45,310 bases of DNA, taken from positions 1 through 45,310 of the forward strand of contig JABHXC010000028.1 of NCBI GenBank assembly GCA_018657475.1, in the 5' to 3' direction. Both the position numbers and the translations under genes were made by a program. The DNA comes from Candidatus Woesearchaeota archaeon (GTDB taxonomy: Archaea > Nanobdellota > Nanobdellia > Woesearchaeales > GW2011-AR9). Shown piece after piece: positions 3,001 to 28,183 of this stretch. The notes under the pieces were generated by a model, which had not been told where the DNA came from, made no database searches, and saw only the letters and a program-made list of their open reading frames with translations. Each line of letters begins with the position of its first letter. Position 1 is the first letter of the stretch.

Positions 3001-3554
3001 GCTGAAACTGTTTTTCTTTTACTATTCTTTAAATCGAAGTTATCAATTTGAGTTATAGTTGGAGTTATGGTTTCTGGTGAAATCTCAGCTACAGGAGTTG
3101 GCTCTGGTTCAGTGATAATTTTTTCTACTGTTTCATCTTCAGGAATAGAAACAACTTCTTGGGAAGGTTCCTCAATATTGTTGAGGAACTCTTCTGGAAG
3201 TTGTTTGGAGGTGTTGTTTGGAGGTAGGTTTATTGTTTCTGAGGTTTCATTTTCTGTAACATTAGAAAGGTGAACTTCCCCAGAAGAGTTCTCTGGGTTA
3301 GGGAGAGTCTCTTCTGGAGTTTGTTCTGGTTTCTTCTCTATTGGATTTATGTTACTTCGGTTTCCACCTAGAGTATGATTTGTGATATTTGATTCGTTTA
3401 CGATTTCTTCAGATGAATCAATGAACCCAATTTCTTCTGACACTACTGCACCGGTTATAGTTCCGGCACTAATTAGGGCAATTGTAAACATTACAGCTAG
3501 GACACTTACTAGTATAATAATGGGTGCTAGTCCGGATAGATGTTGGCGTTTCAT
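1..3554 (-). CDS. Giant Ig-like-repeat surface protein, N-terminal part (3' end outside window)
   Basis: Reading the minus strand from the ATG at 3554 gives an uninterrupted frame of 1184 codons that runs off the left edge, which is why the ORF track omits it. Residues 1-44 are a short basic stretch, a hydrophobic anchor (about 9-33) and 'TITGAVV', a typical secretion or anchor signal of DPANN exported proteins. A Pro/Glu/Asn-rich linker (about 45-170) follows, then a Cys-containing beta-rich region (about 280-480). After that come repeated Ig-like units sharing patterns such as 'VLANITLPN', 'SETTNFTI' and 'ANDSVGFVNN'. Many N-x-S/T sequons suggest glycosylation. It is probably a cell-surface or S-layer-associated adhesin-like protein. 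Its ATG overlaps the stop of the upstream winged-helix gene (ATGA), so the two are probably cotranslated. The ligand and the C-terminal anchor cannot be seen. Confidence 0.85.
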   Translation of the reverse strand, partial: MKRQHLSGLAPIIILVSVLAVMFTIALISAGTITGAVVSEEIGFIDSSEEIVNESNITNHTLGGNRSNINPIEKKPEQTPEETLPNPENSSGEVHLSNVTENETSETINLPPNNTSKQLPEEFLNNIEEPSQEVVSIPEDETVEKIITEPEPTPVAEISPETITPTITQIDNFDLKNSKRKTVSAQYEIITDSNIGIASDDSLVNLKITPENSPIKEIRLNDLNLNNENDLGFEELPKDFPSPLGSWAQVYALNPENLDFTDGLVTVEAKGINLYKCKDYDFEQQDCYGEWALFQTNLTPGETYTFILTAEDPVFGEEVSTCDAENSAGPGVFASACDAADGSLLESDNSLVETQTYGKGGTNFGGLRIQTVNTSITNCGSIDSVLLCYERWATGTNTQTCDVSVDANGGLSYTAVTNTCPGAAANPGVTCTDVTGNGEIWTCANFFGAAGTRAFAKMEMERTTAGAPSTETVSTDVFFFNVTYNEAADIIGPNITFTDPTPNTTSLQLPTFTINATLTDETAVGSCLLEFDGANESMTETTISGTEKQCSVTKTSLADGSYTFQVYGNDTSNNLNWTESRTVTVDGTNPTIIFVDPTDNASTYQTRTNILTNVTATDTNIANITTYLYNASNLVLLNTTINTTASPHFVNFTDLVDGTYLINATAVDNVGNSNDTVTRTNIIIDTTTPLVFDLIPIASTAYNASTIEIAANVTEVNIDTVLANITFPNSTIEQITLSLDSGEKYNGSFTAPTLPGNYNVTIIANDSVGFVNNSETTNFTINDIYPPSVNITIPAEGSNFAQDTDVIINVNVTDQLIVETVLANITLPNTTIIQETLTDDDANGIYNVTFNQTSAVGTYTILILANDTDGNLNNTETRDFNIQESAAPLVTLVSPADTSSQNSSTVIFTCNATDAGGLFNFTLYHNLSGTFTANETIELNGTTNQTSFTINNVADGQHLWNCLVTDNSTGGGNSAFAVNNFTVTVDTVAPAVTLPQPDENTNYSLGNTVNLNVTVIDVFTVSSVLANVTLPNGTINQITLTDSDADDIYNSTYTTQIIGRHNVTFIATDSVTNINSSVTTFFNVTQVPNISLLNPANNAILTDSLVEFNFTVSDDDASLTNCSLYNNITGTWQRDTTIFDVSNSTTNNITKYMPDGKFIWNIECVDSAGFSNFSETNYTVTVNT

Positions 3555-3748
3555 TTAACTTTAAACCAGGCAGTTGCTTTGCCTATAGTAAAACAGTCTA
3601 CTTTCTTCTTCAATTGCAATTTTAGACAATTCCTGTCAGCAGTATGCCATGCAATGTTGAGTTTTTCTGCAATCTCTCGTGTTGAAATGGGCTGCTTGCT
3701 AGCATTGAGAAGTCGTACTATCTGCTTTGCTACCTCTTTTTTGGTCAT
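3551..3748 (-). CDS. Small winged-helix/HTH protein upstream of the surface protein
   Basis: A 65-residue basic protein whose whole length fits one winged-helix fold: helix 'KEVAKQIVRLLNAS', then 'ISTREIAEKLNIAWHTADRN' as the helix-turn-helix, then a short wing ending 'GKATAWFKVK'. It probably binds DNA. Its stop codon overlaps the start of the giant surface-protein gene in an ATGA arrangement, and a minus-strand TATA box lies about 32 nt upstream of its ATG. It is therefore the first gene of a two-gene operon and could control expression of the surface protein or itself. No ligand domain is present. The specific family is not recognised. Confidence 0.75.
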   Translation of the reverse strand: MTKKEVAKQIVRLLNASKQPISTREIAEKLNIAWHTADRNCLKLQLKKKVDCFTIGKATAWFKVK

Positions 3749-3911: not shown

Positions 3912-4115
3912 GTGGCATTACAAAAGAATAGTAATCATCGTGCGCTCTGGAGTCATCTTCAAATTTGGCTAGGAATAGTGATAGTGTTAGTAGGATTGCT
4001 TGTTTTCAAATATTCATGGATTGCAAGTGTAATTGTTTTAGTAATAGGCATTCTTCTTCTTGCCTGGAAGAAAAAAGAATTAAAAGATTTTAAAGAAAAA
4101 CAAAAAGAGAAATAA
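3912..4115 (+). CDS. Small two-helix membrane protein, hypothetical
   Basis: A 67-residue protein with a GTG start. It has a short polar N-terminus, two closely spaced hydrophobic segments (about 17-33 and 36-51) and a very basic, Lys-rich cytoplasmic tail ending 'KDFKEKQKEK'. The start is supported by a TATA box 26 nt upstream, implying a leaderless mRNA. The last 47 bp of coding sequence are duplicated exactly at 5288-5334 next to a decayed relative of this gene. No enzymatic motif is visible and the function is unknown. Confidence 0.6.
   Translation: MALQKNSNHRALWSHLQIWLGIVIVLVGLLVFKYSWIASVIVLVIGILLLAWKKKELKDFKEKQKEK
4067..4113 (+). repeat. 47-bp direct repeat, copy 1 (3' end of the membrane-protein gene)
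   Basis: Perfectly identical to 5288-5334 over 47 bp. This copy encodes the basic tail of the 67-aa membrane protein. The two copies bracket the Fic gene. Confidence 0.95.
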
Positions 4116-4118
4116 AAA

Positions 4119-5048
4119 CTATTTATGAAATAAGAACTTCTGAATTGTTGGTCTCCAAAATGTTTTTGATGTTTTCAAATATTGTTCCATGGACAATCTA
4201 CAAAAATCAAAATTTTGATGGTTGCAATACTCAACTAATGTCTCACGAATTTGAAAATTCATATCACCTTTAAATATCAAAGGAGGATAATTATTCTGAA
4301 GCATTTGTACAACTAATAAAATTCTTCCCAAGCGACTATTACCATCAATAAATGGGTGAACTTTTTGGTAATTGAGATGAAAAATCAGTGGACGTAAGAA
4401 AGGATATACTTTTCTATCTTTATATTTCTTTAAAGTTTCTTTTAAATCATTTCTAATTTTGTTTGGCAATGATGTTAATGCTTTCTCAAGATAGCCAAAT
4501 GTGTTAATCTGTTTTTTAAATTTACCAGCATGTGAATAAATTCCACGATAAATGTCTTCATGTAACCTTTTAAACTGAACAATTGATCTAAATTCACTTT
4601 GCATTAATCTGAAGAGAGATTTTTTAGAATTATTATACAAATGAATGTCTAATTCTGGAAGTACAATTCTTTTCTTTTTATCTATGCTATCTGCAAGTTT
4701 AGGAGTTATTGTTGAACCTTCTAATTCCATACTATTTGCTAAAAAAAGCCTAACAAACTCACTAAAAATCTCTTTTTTATTTTTCTCTTCCAGTAAATTG
4801 AAAAATATTTGATAAAAAACTTTTTCTGTTTCTATTTCAACAATCTCTTTTAAAGTGAAATATGTTTGGAAATTTTCTTTAAAATATTTCGCTCTATCTG
4901 TAGCTATTTTCTGAATTATTTTTTCATTATAGCCTATTTTATCTTTAGCGATTATGAATGAGGCTTTTTTGATTTTATTTCCTATCCGAAAACTATGATC
5001 TATATAAGTGTAAGTTATACCATTAACCACTCTTTTTTGTAAAAACAT
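4119..5048 (-). CDS. Fic-domain protein (probable AMP transferase) with N-terminal inhibitory helix
   Basis: 309 residues. The Fic active-site motif is clear at 231-242, 'HPFIDGNSRLGR', matching HPFx(D/E)GN(G/S)R: the His is the catalytic base and the acidic and Arg residues bind Mg-ATP. At 106-111 'SMELEG' matches the inhibitory motif (S/T)xxxE(G/N), placing it in the class with an N-terminal self-inhibitory helix. By family knowledge it would transfer AMP or a related group to a protein hydroxyl side chain; the target cannot be told. The N-terminal about 100 residues are Lys-rich and unassigned. A TATA box at 5071-5078 gives a leaderless transcript. It sits alone between two genes on a segment bounded by a 47-bp direct repeat, suggesting later insertion. 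Confidence 0.88.
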   Translation of the reverse strand: MFLQKRVVNGITYTYIDHSFRIGNKIKKASFIIAKDKIGYNEKIIQKIATDRAKYFKENFQTYFTLKEIVEIETEKVFYQIFFNLLEEKNKKEIFSEFVRLFLANSMELEGSTITPKLADSIDKKKRIVLPELDIHLYNNSKKSLFRLMQSEFRSIVQFKRLHEDIYRGIYSHAGKFKKQINTFGYLEKALTSLPNKIRNDLKETLKKYKDRKVYPFLRPLIFHLNYQKVHPFIDGNSRLGRILLVVQMLQNNYPPLIFKGDMNFQIRETLVEYCNHQNFDFCRLSMEQYLKTSKTFWRPTIQKFLFHK

Positions 5049-5070
5049 GATTTTTTTTTGTTTAATAGAT

Positions 5071-5078
5071 ATATAAAT
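5071..5078 (-). promoter_or_regulatory. TATA box for the Fic gene
   Basis: The minus strand reads ATTTATAT, centred 26 nt from the ATG at 5048; a leaderless transcript is predicted. Confidence 0.45.
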
Positions 5079-5238
5079 GTTATGTGGTTTTTAAACCTAC
5101 ATAATCTCAAAAAAAACAAGTAGTGGGGTTATTTAAACGCAATTTAAGTAAGAGATACCACTACACAAAAACAAAAACAAATCAAAAATTAAACCTACTA
5201 AATCACACTAATTTGGAAAAATTACTCCAAAAACACCA

Positions 5239-5336
5239 ATGGACAGAAGCATTATTATTCTGACTATTGGAATTATCTTAACTTTGTGAAGAAAAAAGAA
5301 TTAAAAGATTTTAAAGAAAAACAAAAAGAGAAATGA
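5239..5336 (+). pseudogene. Decayed partial copy of the 67-aa membrane-protein gene
   Basis: From the ATG at 5239 the reading is a short hydrophobic helix resembling the second membrane segment of the 3912 gene ('IIILTIGIILTL' against 'IVLVIGILLLAW'). At the TGG codon one base is missing (actttg-tg-aag), causing an immediate stop. Restoring that base re-opens the frame into the identical tail encoded by the 47-bp repeat and a TGA at 5334-5336. The first membrane segment is absent. The remnant ends 1 bp before the stop codon of the KaiC-like gene on the other strand. Confidence 0.7.
5288..5334 (+). repeat. 47-bp direct repeat, copy 2
   Basis: Identical to 4067-4113. It lies at the 3' end of the decayed paralogue, abutting the end of the KaiC-like gene. 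The exact identity contrasts with the diverged sequence upstream, suggesting recent duplication, gene conversion or selection on this tail. Confidence 0.95.
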
Positions 5337-5337
5337 G

Positions 5338-6819
5338 TTAACTCTCATCCAACCCACCAAATATTTCTTGGTCAGGAAAGACGTCAAGACCATCAGAAGT
5401 AATATTCATAGCTACAATCTTGTGCTGATGACCAGCTCCCCGTAATTTAAGAACTTCAATTGCTCGCTCCCTTACATTACCTCGTTTAATGTTATAAATC
5501 ACAACAACGGCGTCAGCAAGAAATTCTTCAACACCAGTGGTAGAAAAAATAGTTGGAACTTGTTTAGTTTCCGTTATCAAAAATGAAGTTGCACCAATTT
5601 CTTCAAAAAATCTAAACAACTGCTCAATGTAAATTCTGTAAGAATCCTCTTTACCAGTAAAAGCAGAAGCAATAGCTGTTAAAGAATCAACAACAATAAT
5701 GTCTGGTTTAAAATTACCTGGAAAAATGATTGGTTGGACATCAATTAATAGTTCACCTTTTGATTTCATTAAAAGAGCATCCACACTACGCGTGATTTCA
5801 AATGGATTAAACCTTTTTAGAAGAAGATTACCGTCTTTGATATGTTTCTGGGGGTCCCAGCCAAAATCCTCCATATGTTTAATTAGTCGTTCTTCAGACT
5901 CTTCAAAGCTCATATACAAACATTTCTCGCCATGAGAAGCATGATATTCAAGAGTTTGTAATGCAAAAATAGTTTTTCCACTTCCTGCACCACCTGCCAC
6001 CAATACAGCAGCCCCTTTTGGCAATCCTTTATCCAATAAAGCATCAAATCCCTCAATACCAGTATAAATGTATTCTTGTTCTTCTCCTTTTTTGAGTTTT
6101 TTATGGGGCTTCTTTTTTCCTTTTAACTCTTCTTCAATTTCTTCTTTTATAGCAGCCATGTCAATTTTCTTGTTGCCATTTACTGTTTTGGCAACATGGG
6201 CGACAGGTGCACGTTCCTCTTTGATTTTAGCATGATGTCTCTTGATTTTGCCAGACTTCAATTCTGCCTGAATTTTATCTTTAGCTTCTTCAATATCAAA
6301 TTGAGGTTTAGTTGATTTTGATTCTGATTCTTTTTCTGCTTTGGATTTACGAGGTAATTTAGTAATATGTTCTTCTTGAAGAGGTTGAAGTTTAACATCT
6401 TCTTTTGGAGATGGTTCATCTTTTAGCGTGTGGACGTTGTCCTGGTTTACTTTTTTAACATTAACTTTGCCAGAGTTGGTCAAAGAATGTAACTGATCAG
6501 AGATTGTTGATTTAGTTAAGCCGGTTTTTTCAATCATCTCACTTATTGAAAGTCCTTCAGGATGACTTTTAAGAAGTTCTTGAAGAGATTGAAGCGCAAT
6601 ATCTTCTTTTGTTGGTTCTTCTTGCTTCCATTTATGCACTTTTGCCATATTGATTTGTTTGACATCAACTTTTTCAGAACCAACTAAAGCATGTAAACGA
6701 GCTAAAACAGTATGTCTGGCCAAACCGGTTTTGTTCATAATATCCTGAATAGTAAGACCATCTGGGTGTGACTGGAGAAGATCAATAATTGTAATTTTCT
6801 TTTTATCTTTTTTTTCCAT
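5338..6819 (-). CDS. KaiC/RadA-like ATPase with two N-terminal HTH repeats
   Basis: The listed ORF starts at 6849, but the TATA box at 6855-6862 would start transcription near 6832, downstream of that ATG. The ATG at 6819 has an AGGAA ribosome site just ahead, so I use it (493 aa). Two homologous winged-helix-type repeats lie at about 9-62 and 79-130 ('LLQSHPDGLTIQDI' and 'LLKSHPEGLSISEM'). A long charged linker follows, then one KaiC domain from about 250: Walker A 'GGAGSGKT' (276-283), a 'FEES' acidic pair (about 305-308) and Walker B 'PDIIVVDS' (372-379). Family members are ATP-dependent signalling or recombination-type ATPases. The HTH repeats suggest recruitment to DNA. It lies at the 3' side of the signalling island, which also contains a P-loop-less relative (17676-18200). 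Confidence 0.85.
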   Translation of the reverse strand: MEKKDKKKITIIDLLQSHPDGLTIQDIMNKTGLARHTVLARLHALVGSEKVDVKQINMAKVHKWKQEEPTKEDIALQSLQELLKSHPEGLSISEMIEKTGLTKSTISDQLHSLTNSGKVNVKKVNQDNVHTLKDEPSPKEDVKLQPLQEEHITKLPRKSKAEKESESKSTKPQFDIEEAKDKIQAELKSGKIKRHHAKIKEERAPVAHVAKTVNGNKKIDMAAIKEEIEEELKGKKKPHKKLKKGEEQEYIYTGIEGFDALLDKGLPKGAAVLVAGGAGSGKTIFALQTLEYHASHGEKCLYMSFEESEERLIKHMEDFGWDPQKHIKDGNLLLKRFNPFEITRSVDALLMKSKGELLIDVQPIIFPGNFKPDIIVVDSLTAIASAFTGKEDSYRIYIEQLFRFFEEIGATSFLITETKQVPTIFSTTGVEEFLADAVVVIYNIKRGNVRERAIEVLKLRGAGHQHKIVAMNITSDGLDVFPDQEIFGGLDES

Positions 6820-6854
6820 GTTGAATTCCTGTTTAAACGAGTATATCATATTCG

Positions 6855-7194: not shown

Positions 7195-10065
7195 TTAGTT
7201 TAATTTATTCTGTAATAATTCTAGCTGTTTTTTAAGATTTTTTCTGATTTTTTCTTCAGATTGTTTTTTTAACTGAGTTTTTAAATCAATTTCTTGTTGA
7301 TGTAATTTCTTCTTCAATTTCAAATGGGCAGCTCCAATAAGTTCTTTCTTCAACTTAGCTTTTTCAGTTTTTAATTTGATCTCATCTTTTGCTTTAAGAT
7401 CTGCCAATTTTTGCTGTAAGTCGTTATCTTTTAATCTCAAATCACTCAGATGATTTTTCTGCTCCATAGCCAATTCTTTTGATTTTTCTTGAAGAAGAGT
7501 TTTTTTTCGTTTTAATTCATCATTAAGTTTTTTGATCTTACTTTGACTGAGATTGCTTGACTTTCTAAACACACCAAGATGTTTGTTTAATTCTCGTACT
7601 TCATTTAAATGATGTTCTTTCTCTAGAATTAATTGTTTTTTCTTCCTGTTTAAAACAGTAGTTTTTAACTTTAAATTACTTCTAAGTTTCCTGATTAAAA
7701 CTTGATTGAGCTTTTGTTCATCATTTAAAGCCTGAACTGTTTTGTTTAATTCATTAGATTTTTTTCTCCAAAAGTCTTGACTTTCTTTACTTTTTTCTCT
7801 TAAGTTTAATTCTTTTAACTTTAGAATTTTTTTATCATGAGCAATTGTTTTGTTTAGTTTGCTTAGCTTAAGAGAGAATTCTTTGTTTAACTTAACAGTT
7901 AATTTTCTTTCATGTTCAGCAATCTTTTCATTTAACTCTTGGTGAGCACTTTGAATAATTCTTTCTTTTAGTTCAGCTTTTTCCCTAATAAGTCTAGCAT
8001 GATCTCTCTTTTTAATAGATTCAATTGATCGGAGTTGTTTCTGTTGGATCAATTTTTGCTGTTGAATTAATTTCTGTCGAGAAATCTTTTCTTGCTCAAG
8101 CTGAATTTCTTTTCCTTTTAAGACAGCTATTTTTTGTTGCAAGCCACCTACCATCTTTCTTACTTTGTTACTGCTTAAACTTTGATCGCTTTTTAATTCG
8201 TTAATTTGGTTGTTTAGATCTTCTTGTTTCTGTTTCAGAGAAACAAGTTCTTTAACTAAAACATCTTCTTTCAATTTTAAAGAATCGCGTTCACTTTTGT
8301 TTCTTACACTTAATTCTTCTAACTTCTTTTCTGTTTCTTCATTTAGCGCTCTTAATTTGTCTTCTGCTTCCGCACCCAAACGAGACTTTAATTCCTGTTC
8401 TTGTTGGAATAATTTATTATGAAGATTTTCTTGCGCCTGATTGAGTATATTAACTCTTGACTGAACTTTTTCATTCTCTAACTTTTCTCGTTCTTGCTTT
8501 TTAAGAACAAAAAATTCTTTTTCTAGATTTTCTCTTTGTAGATCTAACTCGTCTTGATAGTGTCTTTTCTCTTCAGCAAGCAGTTTTTCTTTCTCTTGAA
8601 GAGAGTTATCTTTTAACTGTAAATTGTTTACCAATCTACTGACTTCACTCTTAGTTAAGATTTGATCTTTTTCTAAAGAACTAATTTTATTTTTTAGATT
8701 TTCTCGTAATTGCTGAGCTGAGCTTTCTTTTTTGCTCATCTCTTCCAACATCCTGTTCTCTCTTAAGTTTAAATTACTTTTTTCTTGCTCCATTTTTGTC
8801 TGGAGCACATTTATCTTAGAGTTAAAATCTTGTTTTAATTTTTTTTCAAGAACGGTTCTCTGCTTATTCAAAGCGCGATGAAGTTTCTTTTTGAGCTTCT
8901 TTTCATGTTGTTGGTCCAACTTACTTTTTAAATTGGTTTGAGTCTCTTTAACAATCGTTGTTACTAGTTGAGCTTTCTCACGCTCAAATCTTGCTTTTTC
9001 TTGTTTTTTAAGTTCAGTAAAACTCTTTATCAAATTTTGCTTTTGAGAATCAAGATCGTCTTGATAACGCTTCTTTTCAGTTACTAATTGTTTTTCTTTT
9101 TCTTTTAAATCATTATTTTTTAATTGTAAATTGTCTTTTAATCTTTTTAGCTCGCTCTTGCTAAAAACTTGATCTTTTTCTAAAAGACGAATTTGAGTAG
9201 TTAAGTTTTGTTGTTGTTGTTGCAATGATTGTCTTTGTTTTTTAAGTTCAATAAAACTCTTTGTTGAATTTTGCTTTTGAGAATTAAGATCGTCTTGATA
9301 ACGCTTCTTTTCAGTTACTAATTGTTTCTCTTTTTTATTTAAATCATTATTTTTTAATTGTAAATTGTCTTTTAATCTTTTTAGCTCGCTCTTACCAAAA
9401 ACTTGATCTTTTTCTAGAAAACGAATTTGGTTTTTAAAGCCTTCTTGCTTTTGTCGCAGTGAAAGCTCACTTTTTTTCATCTCTTCTAAGATTTTCTTCT
9501 TCCTTAAATTAAGATCAGATTTTTCTTTCTCCATTCTTTTTTGGAGACCATCAATCCTAAGATCAAAATCTTGTTTTAATTTGGTCTCTAGAACTTTCTT
9601 TTGTTTACGTAGTGCTTGTTGCAGTCTTCTTTTGAATTTTAGTTCATATTCTTTTTCTAATTGTTTTTCTAATTGTTCTTTTTCACGACGTTCTTTCTCC
9701 CTATAAGCTTCATCAATGATTTCAGGAGGTATTCTTGGAGATAATTTTTTCTTAATTTTAACTAAAATGTTTTCTTCAACGGGTTGAACCTGGGATTCTC
9801 TGAAAAAATACTTTTCAACTATTTCACCTTTAGGTTCCGTTTTTTTTCTTTGATTCTTTTTAGTAGTTTTTTTAGAATTATGTTTGTTATGAGTCTTTTT
9901 TTTAGCATTAACTTTCTTAACAGAAGTTCTTTTAGCACTTGATTTTTTGTTAGGATTTCTGCTAGAATTCTTCTTTGAAACTTTTTTGGATTTAGATAGA
10001 ATAGTTTTACTGGAAACGGGCGTACTCTCCCTCTGCTTACTGAAGACTTTATCGAAAAGTGCCAT
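7195..10065 (-). CDS. 956-aa repetitive coiled-coil protein with basic N-terminus
   Basis: Residues 1-80 are Lys/Ser/Asn-rich and strongly basic. Residues 116-129 carry 'IIDEAYREKERREK', resembling the 'EAY' motif in the tails of the two HAMP receptors of this island. From about 125 to the end the sequence is almost continuous heptad-type helix (Lys, Glu, Leu, Gln) without Pro. An internal unit recurs at least five times, for example 'SELKRLKDNLQLKNNDL' followed by 'EKKRYQDDL' about 20 residues later. Two neighbouring copies are nearly identical in DNA with a 78-residue period. There is no ATPase head, so it is not an SMC protein. A long rod-like scaffold or filament for the receptor cluster is inferred. 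An AGAGGT ribosome site precedes the ATG, and it follows the CheY-like gene by 65 bp. Confidence 0.8.
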   Translation of the reverse strand: MALFDKVFSKQRESTPVSSKTILSKSKKVSKKNSSRNPNKKSSAKRTSVKKVNAKKKTHNKHNSKKTTKKNQRKKTEPKGEIVEKYFFRESQVQPVEENILVKIKKKLSPRIPPEIIDEAYREKERREKEQLEKQLEKEYELKFKRRLQQALRKQKKVLETKLKQDFDLRIDGLQKRMEKEKSDLNLRKKKILEEMKKSELSLRQKQEGFKNQIRFLEKDQVFGKSELKRLKDNLQLKNNDLNKKEKQLVTEKKRYQDDLNSQKQNSTKSFIELKKQRQSLQQQQQNLTTQIRLLEKDQVFSKSELKRLKDNLQLKNNDLKEKEKQLVTEKKRYQDDLDSQKQNLIKSFTELKKQEKARFEREKAQLVTTIVKETQTNLKSKLDQQHEKKLKKKLHRALNKQRTVLEKKLKQDFNSKINVLQTKMEQEKSNLNLRENRMLEEMSKKESSAQQLRENLKNKISSLEKDQILTKSEVSRLVNNLQLKDNSLQEKEKLLAEEKRHYQDELDLQRENLEKEFFVLKKQEREKLENEKVQSRVNILNQAQENLHNKLFQQEQELKSRLGAEAEDKLRALNEETEKKLEELSVRNKSERDSLKLKEDVLVKELVSLKQKQEDLNNQINELKSDQSLSSNKVRKMVGGLQQKIAVLKGKEIQLEQEKISRQKLIQQQKLIQQKQLRSIESIKKRDHARLIREKAELKERIIQSAHQELNEKIAEHERKLTVKLNKEFSLKLSKLNKTIAHDKKILKLKELNLREKSKESQDFWRKKSNELNKTVQALNDEQKLNQVLIRKLRSNLKLKTTVLNRKKKQLILEKEHHLNEVRELNKHLGVFRKSSNLSQSKIKKLNDELKRKKTLLQEKSKELAMEQKNHLSDLRLKDNDLQQKLADLKAKDEIKLKTEKAKLKKELIGAAHLKLKKKLHQQEIDLKTQLKKQSEEKIRKNLKKQLELLQNKLN
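9007..9184. repeat. 234-bp-period repeat in the coiled-coil gene, copy 1
   Basis: Nearly identical to 9241-9418 with only scattered substitutions, in frame (78 codons apart). Evidence for recent internal duplication of the coiled-coil unit. Confidence 0.85.
9241..9418. repeat. 234-bp-period repeat in the coiled-coil gene, copy 2
   Basis: Partner of 9007-9184. Both encode the unit with 'KSELKRLKDNLQLKNNDL' and 'EKQLVTEKKRYQDDL'. Confidence 0.85.
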
Positions 10066-11889: not shown

Positions 11890-11983
11890 TTAATCATCTT
11901 ATTATCCCAATAGCTTCTGGTTTAACTTTTTCTAATGTATTCAAATGAATATAGTCCAAATAATTTGGAACTTCTTTTGCATC
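11890..11983. repeat. 94-bp duplication at the 3' end of the substrate-binding gene, copy 1
   Basis: Matches 12882-12975 with a single mismatch; offset 992 bp, the gene length. It covers the last codons and the gene junction. Confidence 0.92.
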
Positions 11984-12889
11984 CGTTAAATCATTTTCAA
12001 TTGCCCATCTTGCTTCATCTTCTAGAGTTACTAATAAAGATTGGTCTAAAGAAATTTTAAATTTAAAGTCATCCCAGAGAGTAGTTATAATCTCTTGATC
12101 TAAATTTAATCTTTCAGCTACAATTGTTTGTGATTCTTCTTTGTTGTTTTTGATAAAATTAGTTGCTTCATCAACCGCCATAAGAAACTTTTCTATAATT
12201 TCAGGATTGTCTTCTACAAACTTATTCAGTACCATTAAATTAAAAGTTTCAGTGTAAACTTCAGAACTGGGTATTACTAAAGAGTTATCTCCCAATAAAT
12301 TTATTGCATTATACGCATGTGGTTCCCAAATAACAATGGCATCAACGTCCCCATTCTGTAACGCAGATGGTAATTCTGAAGGGATAAAACTTACTGTTTC
12401 CACATCAGATTCTAAAATTTTAGTATAAATTAAAAAAGCTCCTAAGAAAAACTGACTTGTTGAACCATCAACAATTCCTATTTTTTTACCTTTTAGATCT
12501 GCTGCAGAGTTAATTCCAACATCTTTTCTGGTAATTACTTTCACATCCTCATTAGAATCTACAAATGTTGCAAAAATAGAAAAGTCTTGTCTCTTGAAAC
12601 TATTAAACATAATAGGAGTAGGTGCAACTGTCGATATGTCCACACCACCATTTAACATATCGTTGAAACTTGCTTTCCCAGAATCAAATTCTTTAATAGT
12701 TAAATCCAATCCTTGTTCTTGAAAATAACCTTGATCTTCTGCAACCCAGACTGCTGCAGTGAGTAAACTTGTTTCTGCACCTAACGTGACTTTGTCAAAT
12801 TCTACTTGCTCTTGTGAACAACCTACAACTAGTAGACTAAACGATAAAATCAAAATTAAACTAATTATTTTTCTCTCCATCTTAATCAT
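11894..12889 (-). CDS. NMT1/SsuA-like periplasmic-type substrate-binding lipoprotein (second copy)
   Basis: 331 residues. It has an N-terminal signal with lipobox 'LLVVGCSQ' (Cys about 24), then a type 2 binding-protein fold of the NMT1/THI5/SsuA/TauA group: 'VTLGAETSLLTAAVWVAEDQ', 'GVDISTVAPTPIMF', 'LKGKKIGIVDGSTSQFF' and 'GDVDAIVIWEPHAYN' are typical. In that family the ligands are nitrate, sulfonates, bicarbonate or thiamine precursors; the ligand here is not predictable. No permease or ATPase gene follows. Instead it is flanked by HAMP receptors, so a ligand-presenting role in signalling is inferred. The ATG overlaps the stop of the upstream paralogue (ATGA). A second ATG three codons in is an alternative start. 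Confidence 0.87.
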   Translation of the reverse strand: MIKMERKIISLILILSFSLLVVGCSQEQVEFDKVTLGAETSLLTAAVWVAEDQGYFQEQGLDLTIKEFDSGKASFNDMLNGGVDISTVAPTPIMFNSFKRQDFSIFATFVDSNEDVKVITRKDVGINSAADLKGKKIGIVDGSTSQFFLGAFLIYTKILESDVETVSFIPSELPSALQNGDVDAIVIWEPHAYNAINLLGDNSLVIPSSEVYTETFNLMVLNKFVEDNPEIIEKFLMAVDEATNFIKNNKEESQTIVAERLNLDQEIITTLWDDFKFKISLDQSLLVTLEDEARWAIENDLTDAKEVPNYLDYIHLNTLEKVKPEAIGIIR

Positions 12890-12975
12890 CTTATTATCCC
12901 AATAGCTTCTGGTTTAACTTTTTCTAATGTATTTAAATGAATATAGTCCAAATAATTTGGAACTTCTTTTGCATC
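12882..12975. repeat. 94-bp duplication at the 3' end of the substrate-binding gene, copy 2
   Basis: Partner of 11890-11983, one mismatch, far more similar than the rest of the two genes. It indicates tandem duplication with later gene conversion or strong local constraint. Confidence 0.92.
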
Positions 12976-13944
12976 TGTCAAGTTATTCTCAACATACCAT
13001 CTTGCTTCATCTTCAAGAGTTAAAAGTAAAGAGTGATCCAGAACAACATTAAAGTTATAATTCGCCCATAGTTCTTCTATATCTTGTTTAGTTCCATTAA
13101 CAGCAACAGCAACAATTTCTATAGACTCTTGTTTATTTTGTTTAACAAATTTTTCTGCTTTAAACAACGCTCTAATTATCTTTTCAAAAACTTCTGGATG
13201 TTCACTAATCAGATCAGTCTTTGATGCTAAATTAAATGTTGCAGAATAGCCATAATCATTTGGTAAAAGATTAGCTTCTTCCCCTAAACTTCTCTGAGCT
13301 TTTATAATGTTTGGTTCCCAAGTAAAAATAACGTCCACTTGTTTACTTTTAATTGCTTCAACCATCTCACCCGGTTTTAAATCAATGAGTTCAACATCAT
13401 CTAAACTTAAACTATTGAAGACAAAAAAAGTTATCATTGAAAAATGAGCAGTGGTTCCTTTCGTTGTAGCTACTATTTTTCCTTTTAAGTCTGCTGGATT
13501 CACAATTCCCGTATCTTTCCTGGTAAGAACTTTTACGTGATCTGCAGAATTAACTATTGTTGTAAAAGTCATAAAATCATTTCTTTCAAAACTTTTAACC
13601 ACAATGTTAGGATCAGAAACAGTTGCAATATCAACCTCATCATCTAACATCGCCTGAAAAGCAAATTTTCCTGCTGAATAACCTTTTATCTCGACATTAA
13701 CACCTTCTTCCAAAAAATAACCATTAGAATCAGCTATATGGATCAAAGCAGGAAGAAGACTTGTAGCACTAATACTAATAGATACATCTTCAAAATCTCT
13801 TTTTTCTTCCGCCTCAGAGACCATAAAAGATACTAAGAAAATTAGGCCCAAGATCACAACAATTCCTATAACTACCAACAATAAATTACTTGATTTTTTA
13901 TTGTTATTATTGTTTTTATTATTGTTATCTATCACTTTTTTCAT
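12886..13944 (-). CDS. NMT1/SsuA-like substrate-binding protein, membrane-anchored (first copy)
   Basis: 352 residues. The N-terminus is Asn/Lys-rich followed by one membrane segment (about 22-43) with no lipobox Cys, so it is anchored by a helix rather than a lipid. The rest is paralogous to the next gene: 'SISATSLLPALIHIADSNGY', 'EVDIATVSDPNIVV', 'LKGKIVATTKGTTAHF', 'KQVDVIFTWEPNI'. The last about 26 residues, from 'NLTDAKEVPNYLDYIHLN' on, are almost identical in both proteins although the middle parts have clearly diverged, presumably for different ligands. It is the first of the tandem pair and lies just downstream of a HAMP receptor. Confidence 0.87.
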   Translation of the reverse strand: MKKVIDNNNKNNNNNKKSSNLLLVVIGIVVILGLIFLVSFMVSEAEEKRDFEDVSISISATSLLPALIHIADSNGYFLEEGVNVEIKGYSAGKFAFQAMLDDEVDIATVSDPNIVVKSFERNDFMTFTTIVNSADHVKVLTRKDTGIVNPADLKGKIVATTKGTTAHFSMITFFVFNSLSLDDVELIDLKPGEMVEAIKSKQVDVIFTWEPNIIKAQRSLGEEANLLPNDYGYSATFNLASKTDLISEHPEVFEKIIRALFKAEKFVKQNKQESIEIVAVAVNGTKQDIEELWANYNFNVVLDHSLLLTLEDEARWYVENNLTDAKEVPNYLDYIHLNTLEKVKPEAIGIIR

Positions 13945-27694: not shown

Positions 27695-28183
27695 TTATCG
27701 TCGTCTTTTCGTTGTTTTACGTTTAGCAGGAGCTTTACGCTTTGCAGCTTTTTTCTTAGCTGGTTTACGTTTAGCAGGAGCTTTACGCTTTGCAGCTTTT
27801 TTCTTAGCTGGTTTACGTTTAGCAGGTGCTTTACGCTTTGCAGCTTTTTTCTTAGCTGGTTTACGTTTAGCAGATGCTTTACGCTTTGCAGCTTTTTTCT
27901 TAGCTGGTTTACGTTTAGCAACTTTTTTCTTAGTAGCTTTTTTCTTACTACGTTTTCTTCCTCGTGCCATTTTAGCTCGAGCAACGTTTCCTTGCTTGTC
28001 GATGAAGTATAAGTAACCAGACTCTTTCTTCACGCCAGCTTTTGCTACCACCTGTGTTTTCTTACGGCCTTTTCTTTGACCAGCTCTACTCATTGGAGCT
28101 CGTGCTACATTCCCATTTTTATCAACGAAATATAAGTAGCCTGACTCTTTTTTTACTTTAGTTTTTGAAACAACTTGTGCCAT
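27695..28183 (-). CDS. Histone-H1-like Lys/Arg-repeat DNA-binding protein
   Basis: 162 residues. Two copies of a 40-50-residue unit with 'KKESGYLYFVDKNGNVARAPM' (about 11-32 and 52-73) are followed by a tail of four 16-residue repeats 'APAKRKPAKKKAAKRK' (variant 'ASAKRK...'), a composition like eukaryotic histone H1 tails and bacterial KAKPAK proteins. It probably coats DNA or RNA. GAGGAGGTAG 7-8 nt before the ATG is a very strong ribosome site and CTTTAAATAC is a likely TATA box, suggesting high expression. The 27655-27984 ORF is its out-of-frame shadow. Confidence 0.82.
   Translation of the reverse strand: MAQVVSKTKVKKESGYLYFVDKNGNVARAPMSRAGQRKGRKKTQVVAKAGVKKESGYLYFIDKQGNVARAKMARGRKRSKKKATKKKVAKRKPAKKKAAKRKASAKRKPAKKKAAKRKAPAKRKPAKKKAAKRKAPAKRKPAKKKAAKRKAPAKRKTTKRRR
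27717..27908. repeat. Four tandem 48-bp units in the H1-like gene
   Basis: Units at 27717, 27765, 27813 and 27861 differ by one or two bases and keep frame (16 codons). A partial unit follows. Confidence 0.95.

What the first reader, a model, noticed from the sequence alone, without database searches (positions are those of the whole stretch)
4067..5334. Perfect 47-bp direct repeat bracketing a Fic gene, with a decayed gene copy
The repeat regenerates the 3' end of the small membrane gene on both sides of the Fic gene. Upstream of copy 2, similarity continues weakly into a frame-shifted remnant. This looks like an att-like or duplication-mediated insertion without integrase, or paralogue tails homogenised by conversion.
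Basis: partly seen in the sequence, partly recalled or inferred. Interest (0 to 1): 0.52.

Follow-up and report, generated by a model that had tools for sequence, protein, structure and literature searches.

The report
Fic gene inserted beside duplicated gene end
In an uncultivated archaeon a foreign-looking toxin-type gene (Fic) sits between two copies of the tail end of a neighbouring gene, the footprint of an insertion that left that neighbour intact, and the same footprint recurs around Fic and other toxin-like genes in related archaea.

Summary
The 47-bp perfect direct repeat is real and unique in the genome. It is the last 15 codons plus the first stop-codon base of a 67-aa membrane gene. 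It brackets a 1,174-bp AT-rich stretch (GC 26%, lowest 0.6% of the genome) holding one Fic gene. Upstream of copy 2 is a short frame-shifted remnant of a related gene: not significant as DNA (P about 0.1), clear as protein (P about 2e-4). The pattern is not private to this window. Of 89 Fic loci in related archaea, eight are bracketed by duplicated gene ends, against 3 of 206 control genes, and those three hold Bro-N or nucleotidyltransferase genes. The two copies usually end at a stop codon in the same register and differ like two coding orthologues. Thirty AsnRS and nineteen Elp3 loci of relatives show no second tail. The insert holds no integrase and no recognised tRNA target. Best reading: horizontally acquired single-gene cargo integrated by recombination at a gene-end fragment it carried (insertion with long target duplication), with the last 47 bp homogenised. 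Movement, donor and recombinase are not shown; the exact empty site was not found. Known in kind, new in this setting.

The parts
3912..4115 (+). Small membrane-protein gene (67 aa, two predicted hydrophobic segments); target gene, intact
   Evidence: ORF; GC 36%, like its surroundings; weak Pfam DUF7649 match below the curated cut-off; no convincing homologue in 353 genomes of the order
4067..4113 (+). Repeat copy 1: in-frame 3' end of the small membrane gene, up to the first base of its stop codon
4114..5287 (.). Inserted segment (1,174 bp, GC 26.1%, lowest 0.6% of the genome)
4119..5048 (-). Fic gene (309 aa); HPFIDGNSRLGR core and an S-MEL-EG inhibitory-type motif upstream of it
   Evidence: Pfam Fic E=3.6e-11; PDB Fic proteins, best E=1.7e-10; motifs read from the translation
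5246..5287 (+). Short frame-shifted remnant of a related membrane gene (SIIILTIGIILTL) upstream of copy 2
   Evidence: not significant as DNA; significant as protein
5288..5334 (+). Repeat copy 2: second gene end, reads to TGA (5334-5336), displaced against the KaiC-type gene
5338..6849 (-). KaiC-type ATPase gene with N-terminal HTH domains; right-hand neighbour
   Evidence: Pfam KaiC E=1.1e-48
3551..3748 (-). Small HTH gene; left-hand neighbour, directly next to the KaiC-type gene in relative G006

Best explanation
A horizontally acquired single-gene cargo (Fic) was inserted at the 3' end of a resident small membrane-protein gene. The incoming DNA carried a fragment of a related gene's 3' end. 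Recombination between that fragment and the resident tail integrated the cargo (Campbell-type insertion-duplication if the DNA was circular). The resident gene stayed complete and a second, truncated tail was left on the far side of the cargo. The last 47 bp of the two tails are identical because the crossover and conversion tract lay there, or because later conversion homogenised them. Shown: the duplication, the foreign composition, the remnant, and recurrence of the same architecture at many unrelated genes around Fic and other toxin-type cargo. Inferred: the donor fragment, homologous recombination as the engine, and the order of events.
For: Exact unique repeat. Insert GC 26.1% in the lowest 0.6% of genome windows while the target gene has 36%. 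Remnant upstream of copy 2. KaiC-type and HTH genes adjacent without membrane gene or Fic in G006. The same architecture around Fic in L008, L010, L013, L166, L181, L192, L211 and L232 and around Bro-N or nucleotidyltransferase genes in this genome. In 10 of 12 protein-gene cases the displaced copy reads to a stop in the same codon. Differences are more conservative than random mutation gives, combined P about 1e-8. Gene-end duplications at 8 of 89 Fic loci versus 3 of 206 control genes, P=0.004. No second tail at 30 AsnRS and 19 Elp3 loci of relatives.
Against: The exact empty site (small membrane gene running straight into the KaiC-type gene) was not found. No circular or excised form has been seen. 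Controls came from one genome, the Fic loci from many. Divergent upstream parts with an identical 47-bp tail need an extra gene-conversion step. Most Fic loci (about 80%) show no bracketing repeat.
Confidence: 0.62

Rival explanations
1. Mini integrative element: the 47 bp is an att core, and a site-specific recombinase encoded elsewhere moves Fic-only elements into gene 3' ends, the element restoring the gene end as genomic islands do.
For: 3' ends, including one tRNA 3' end (L139, 21 nt), are the usual place. Two tyrosine recombinases are encoded elsewhere in the genome.
Against: No recombinase in any of these short inserts; about a dozen unrelated targets with unrelated sequences; variable repeat lengths; two cases at gene 5' ends (L075, L063); part of a gene end well before the stop in L065; no repeat occupation of AsnRS or Elp3 in relatives.
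Confidence: 0.2
2. Local paralogues: the membrane gene was tandemly duplicated, Fic landed between or within the copies, the second copy decayed, and gene conversion kept the tails identical. No gene end came in with the cargo.
For: Frame-shifted remnant upstream of copy 2 and the sharp identity jump at the repeat edge. Two substrate-binding-protein genes in the same window (11890-12079 and 12882-13071) are tandem paralogues with near-identical tails.
Against: It does not explain why gene-end duplications gather around Fic, Bro-N and nucleotidyltransferase genes in other loci, where no paralogue remnant was seen.
Confidence: 0.13
3. Assembly artefact: a short repeat or chimeric join in the assembly produced the second copy.
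For: The genome is an 81-contig assembly, probably a metagenome bin, and its reads are not available here.
Against: The same architecture occurs in many independent assemblies with diverged, non-identical copies, which an assembler join cannot make.
Confidence: 0.03

Closest known systems
Insertion with long target duplication of restriction-modification genes in Helicobacter pylori (Nobusato et al. 2000, Gene 259:99-108, cited in PMC4978471 and PMC3031569)
   Same: Small toxin-type cargo bracketed by direct repeats of tens of bases that duplicate target sequence, without a transposase
   Different: Here in DPANN-type archaea, cargo is Fic, Bro-N or nucleotidyltransferase; copies are mostly gene 3' ends and differ like orthologues rather than like a duplication made in place
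Genomic islands and prophages that integrate in a gene 3' end and restore it (tRNA genes, or icd for prophage e14; from general knowledge)
   Same: Host gene stays intact, displaced gene end left at the far side
   Different: About 1.2 kb with a single gene and no integrase; many unrelated targets
Minimal mobile elements of Neisseria (papers found; concept from general knowledge)
   Same: Single genes exchanged between conserved neighbours by homologous recombination
   Different: Those use homology in both flanking genes and need leave no duplicated gene end
Class II Fic proteins (AMP-transferases with an N-terminal inhibitory helix; definition from general knowledge)
   Same: Fic domain, HPF-GN-R core, S-MEL-EG motif N-terminal to it
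   Different: Serine after GN in the core (HPFIDGNSR); activity and target unknown

Membership tests
Insertion with long target duplication | Cargo bracketed by long direct repeats of target sequence | tested here: met
   47 bp exact, unique in the genome
Insertion with long target duplication | Related genome with the empty site, one copy only | tested here: inconclusive
   No relative with the membrane gene found. KaiC-HTH adjacency in G006. For other targets, relatives have a single tail
Insertion with long target duplication | No transposase or integrase in the insert | tested here: met
   Only the Fic ORF is of any length between the repeats
Integrase-driven integrative element | Element encodes an integrase | tested here: not met
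   genome's two tyrosine recombinases lie on other contigs
Integrase-driven integrative element | Direct repeat at a gene 3' end, gene restored | tested here: met
Integrase-driven integrative element | Excision to a circle | not testable with these tools
   no reads available
Class II Fic protein | Fic domain with HPF(D/E)GN-R core | tested here: met
   Pfam Fic E=3.6e-11; HPFIDGNSR in the translation
Class II Fic protein | Inhibitory motif (S/T)xxxE(G/N) N-terminal to the core | tested here: met
   SMELEG in the translation; no structure was predicted
Class II Fic protein | AMP-transferase activity | not testable with these tools
   needs purified protein

The most novel reading that the evidence does not exclude
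These archaea host a class of integrase-less, single-gene mobile cassettes (Fic, Bro-N, nucleotidyltransferase or HepT cargo) that travel with a fragment of a housekeeping gene's end and integrate at the matching gene end in a new lineage, restoring the gene each time.
Probability: 0.3. Interest if true: 0.75.

Novelty: new variant of a known kind. Interest (0 to 1): 0.55.

Why it matters
How toxin-type genes spread among archaea with small genomes and few transposons or integrases is largely unexplained. A recurrent, searchable footprint (cargo between two copies of a gene end, both open to a stop) gives a direct way to find such insertions, to look for donors from the displaced tail, and to test whether homologous recombination alone is enough to move them.

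Tried and rejected
DNA-level alignment upstream of copy 2 was not significant and first suggested no remnant; the anchored protein test reversed that. tRNA target at the window: ARAGORN found no tRNA. Chance repeat: rejected. Target-site duplication made in place: disfavoured, because in most protein cases similarity stops at the stop codon and differences are conservative; L232 and L181 run past the stop. Fixed hot-spot genes: AsnRS and Elp3 of relatives show no second tail. The 47-mer in viral contigs: none. One genome-contig scan with the KaiC-type protein gave only two distant loci. Fic loci L162, L164, L172, L179, L217, L243 and L257 also have repeats, but no clear gene-end pattern was established and they are not counted. 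The repeat at L007 joins two paralogous gene pairs and is not counted. Literature searches on DPANN, Fic and integrative elements gave nothing on this pattern.

Full report
What is there. The window is contig 52 of an 81-contig, 1.06-Mb genome. The nearest named relative of its KaiC-type protein, at 64% identity, is a Woesearchaeota genome, so it is probably a DPANN archaeon (inference). The sequence GAAGAAAAAAGAATTAAAAGATTTTAAAGAAAAACAAAAAGAGAAAT occurs at 4067-4113 and 5288-5334, with no further copy found in the genome. Copy 1 is the end of a 67-aa membrane-protein gene (3912-4115, +). Copy 2 sits tail to tail against a KaiC-type ATPase gene (5338-6849, -). Between them lie 1,174 bp with one gene, a Fic protein on the minus strand (4119-5048). 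The two copies end in different stop codons, TAA and TGA.

Is there a decayed gene copy? As DNA, the 30-200 bases upstream of the two copies are no more alike than shuffled sequence. As protein, read back from the repeat with one base of shift at the TGG codon, SIIILTIGIILTL matches SVIVLVIGILLLA of the intact gene. None of 20,000 random genome segments scored as high, P was 2e-4 for AT-rich segments, and none of 1,137 hydrophobic 13-mers from real ORFs did.

Is it an insertion? The segment between the repeats has 26.1% GC, in the lowest 0.6% of the genome, while the small gene has 36% like its surroundings. In relative G006 the orthologues of the KaiC-type gene and of the small HTH gene (3551-3748) are neighbours, with neither the membrane gene nor Fic between them. 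No genome with the membrane gene but without Fic was found, so the exact empty site remains unseen.

Recurrence. Scanning Fic genes of related genomes for direct repeats across the gene turned up the same architecture repeatedly. L008 has 63 identical bases, the end of a phosphoglycerate-mutase-like gene up to its stop (gene names here are my reading of the translations). L013 has 39 nt of an asparaginyl-tRNA-synthetase end, and L010 a 75-nt end. L166 has an 85-nt end with Fic and a HepT gene between. L211 has a 105-nt end, both copies open (KVKARYQ* and KVKARYY*). L232 has 31 bp at a 5-formyltetrahydrofolate-cyclo-ligase-like gene; L181 and L192 are shorter. In the window's own genome the end of an Lhr-type helicase brackets a Bro-N gene (L111), the end of Elp3 brackets a nucleotidyltransferase gene (L155), and part of another gene's end brackets a second Bro-N gene (L065). 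Two further cases lie at gene starts (L075, 132 bp exact; L063, 27 bp).

Numbers. By the raw test, 19 of 89 Fic loci and 4 of 206 control genes have a bracketing repeat (P about 9e-8), but the 19 include the palindrome group described below. Counting only clear gene-end duplications it is 8 of 89 against 3 of 206 (P=0.004), and all three control cases hold Bro-N or nucleotidyltransferase genes. The control genes came from one genome only, which is a weakness.

What the copies say. In 10 of 12 protein-gene cases the displaced copy reads to a stop in the same codon as the intact gene. In most, similarity stops at that stop codon; in L232 and L181 it runs past it. Where the copies differ, the changes are more conservative at the amino-acid level than random mutation gives (combined P about 1e-8 over seven cases). 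Copies made in place and then left without function should not look like this; two coding ends from different lineages would. Thirty AsnRS and nineteen Elp3 loci from relatives have no second tail, so neither gene is a standing hot spot.

Mechanism. I propose that cargo arrives with a piece of a gene end and recombines with the matching end in the recipient, leaving the recipient gene whole and a spare end on the other side. Homologous recombination is preferred to a site-specific enzyme because targets are unrelated, lengths vary, starts as well as ends are hit, and no recombinase is in the insert. The genome has two tyrosine recombinases elsewhere, so action in trans is not excluded. At this locus the sharp jump from identical to about 60% alike at the edge of the 47 bp requires gene conversion as well. 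No step of the movement itself has been observed.

Known relatives. The nearest described phenomenon is insertion with long target duplication of restriction-modification genes in Helicobacter pylori (Nobusato et al. 2000, cited in PMC4978471 and PMC3031569). Islands that restore a gene end, and Neisseria minimal mobile elements, share some features. Searches of the held literature found no report of such insertions in DPANN archaea; that library is incomplete and the queries were narrow.

A separate pattern. Another Fic subfamily is bracketed by two copies of a 38-nt interrupted palindrome, TTACCCTYTA to TARAGGGTAA. In eight of ten genomes searched whole, the palindrome occurs exactly twice, on either side of that one Fic gene. 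It is listed under things noticed because it may deserve its own study.

Noticed in passing
L004, L007, L015, L202, L205, L210, L218, L222 (genomes G028, G044, G045, G229, G251, G257, G272, G093): A Fic subfamily is bracketed by two direct copies of a 38-nt interrupted palindrome (TTACCCTYTA, 16-18 nt, TARAGGGTAA) 1,066-1,083 nt apart. It occurs exactly twice per genome, about 30 nt before the start codon and 0-12 nt after the stop; the spacer is near-identical within a genome but differs between genomes. Operator, recombination site or hairpin end of a mobile unit is open.
   Followed up: partly
window 11890-12079 and 12882-13071: Two tandem NMT1-type substrate-binding-protein genes share near-identical 3' ends (85% over 190 nt, first 64 nt 98%), ending at the stop codon; probably paralogues with converted tails.
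   Followed up: partly
L075 9365/10722 and L063 359/1575 (same genome as the window): Gene 5' ends duplicated on the far side of 1.2-1.4 kb inserts: 132 bp exact around two unknown ORFs, and 27 bp around a HEPN plus nucleotidyltransferase pair.
   Followed up: partly
L139 8523-8543 and 9685-9705: Another Fic gene of the same genome has a 21-nt near-identical repeat, one copy at the 3' end of a tRNA gene (9696-9816, -).
   Followed up: partly
window 27708-27947: 48-bp tandem repeats inside ORF 27695-28183 (-), encoding a basic Lys/Ala-rich repeat; similar repeats occur on another contig (L153 about 4894-5090).
   Followed up: no
window 4119-5048: The Fic core reads HPFIDGNSRLGR, with serine where glycine or lysine is usual after GN.
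   Followed up: no
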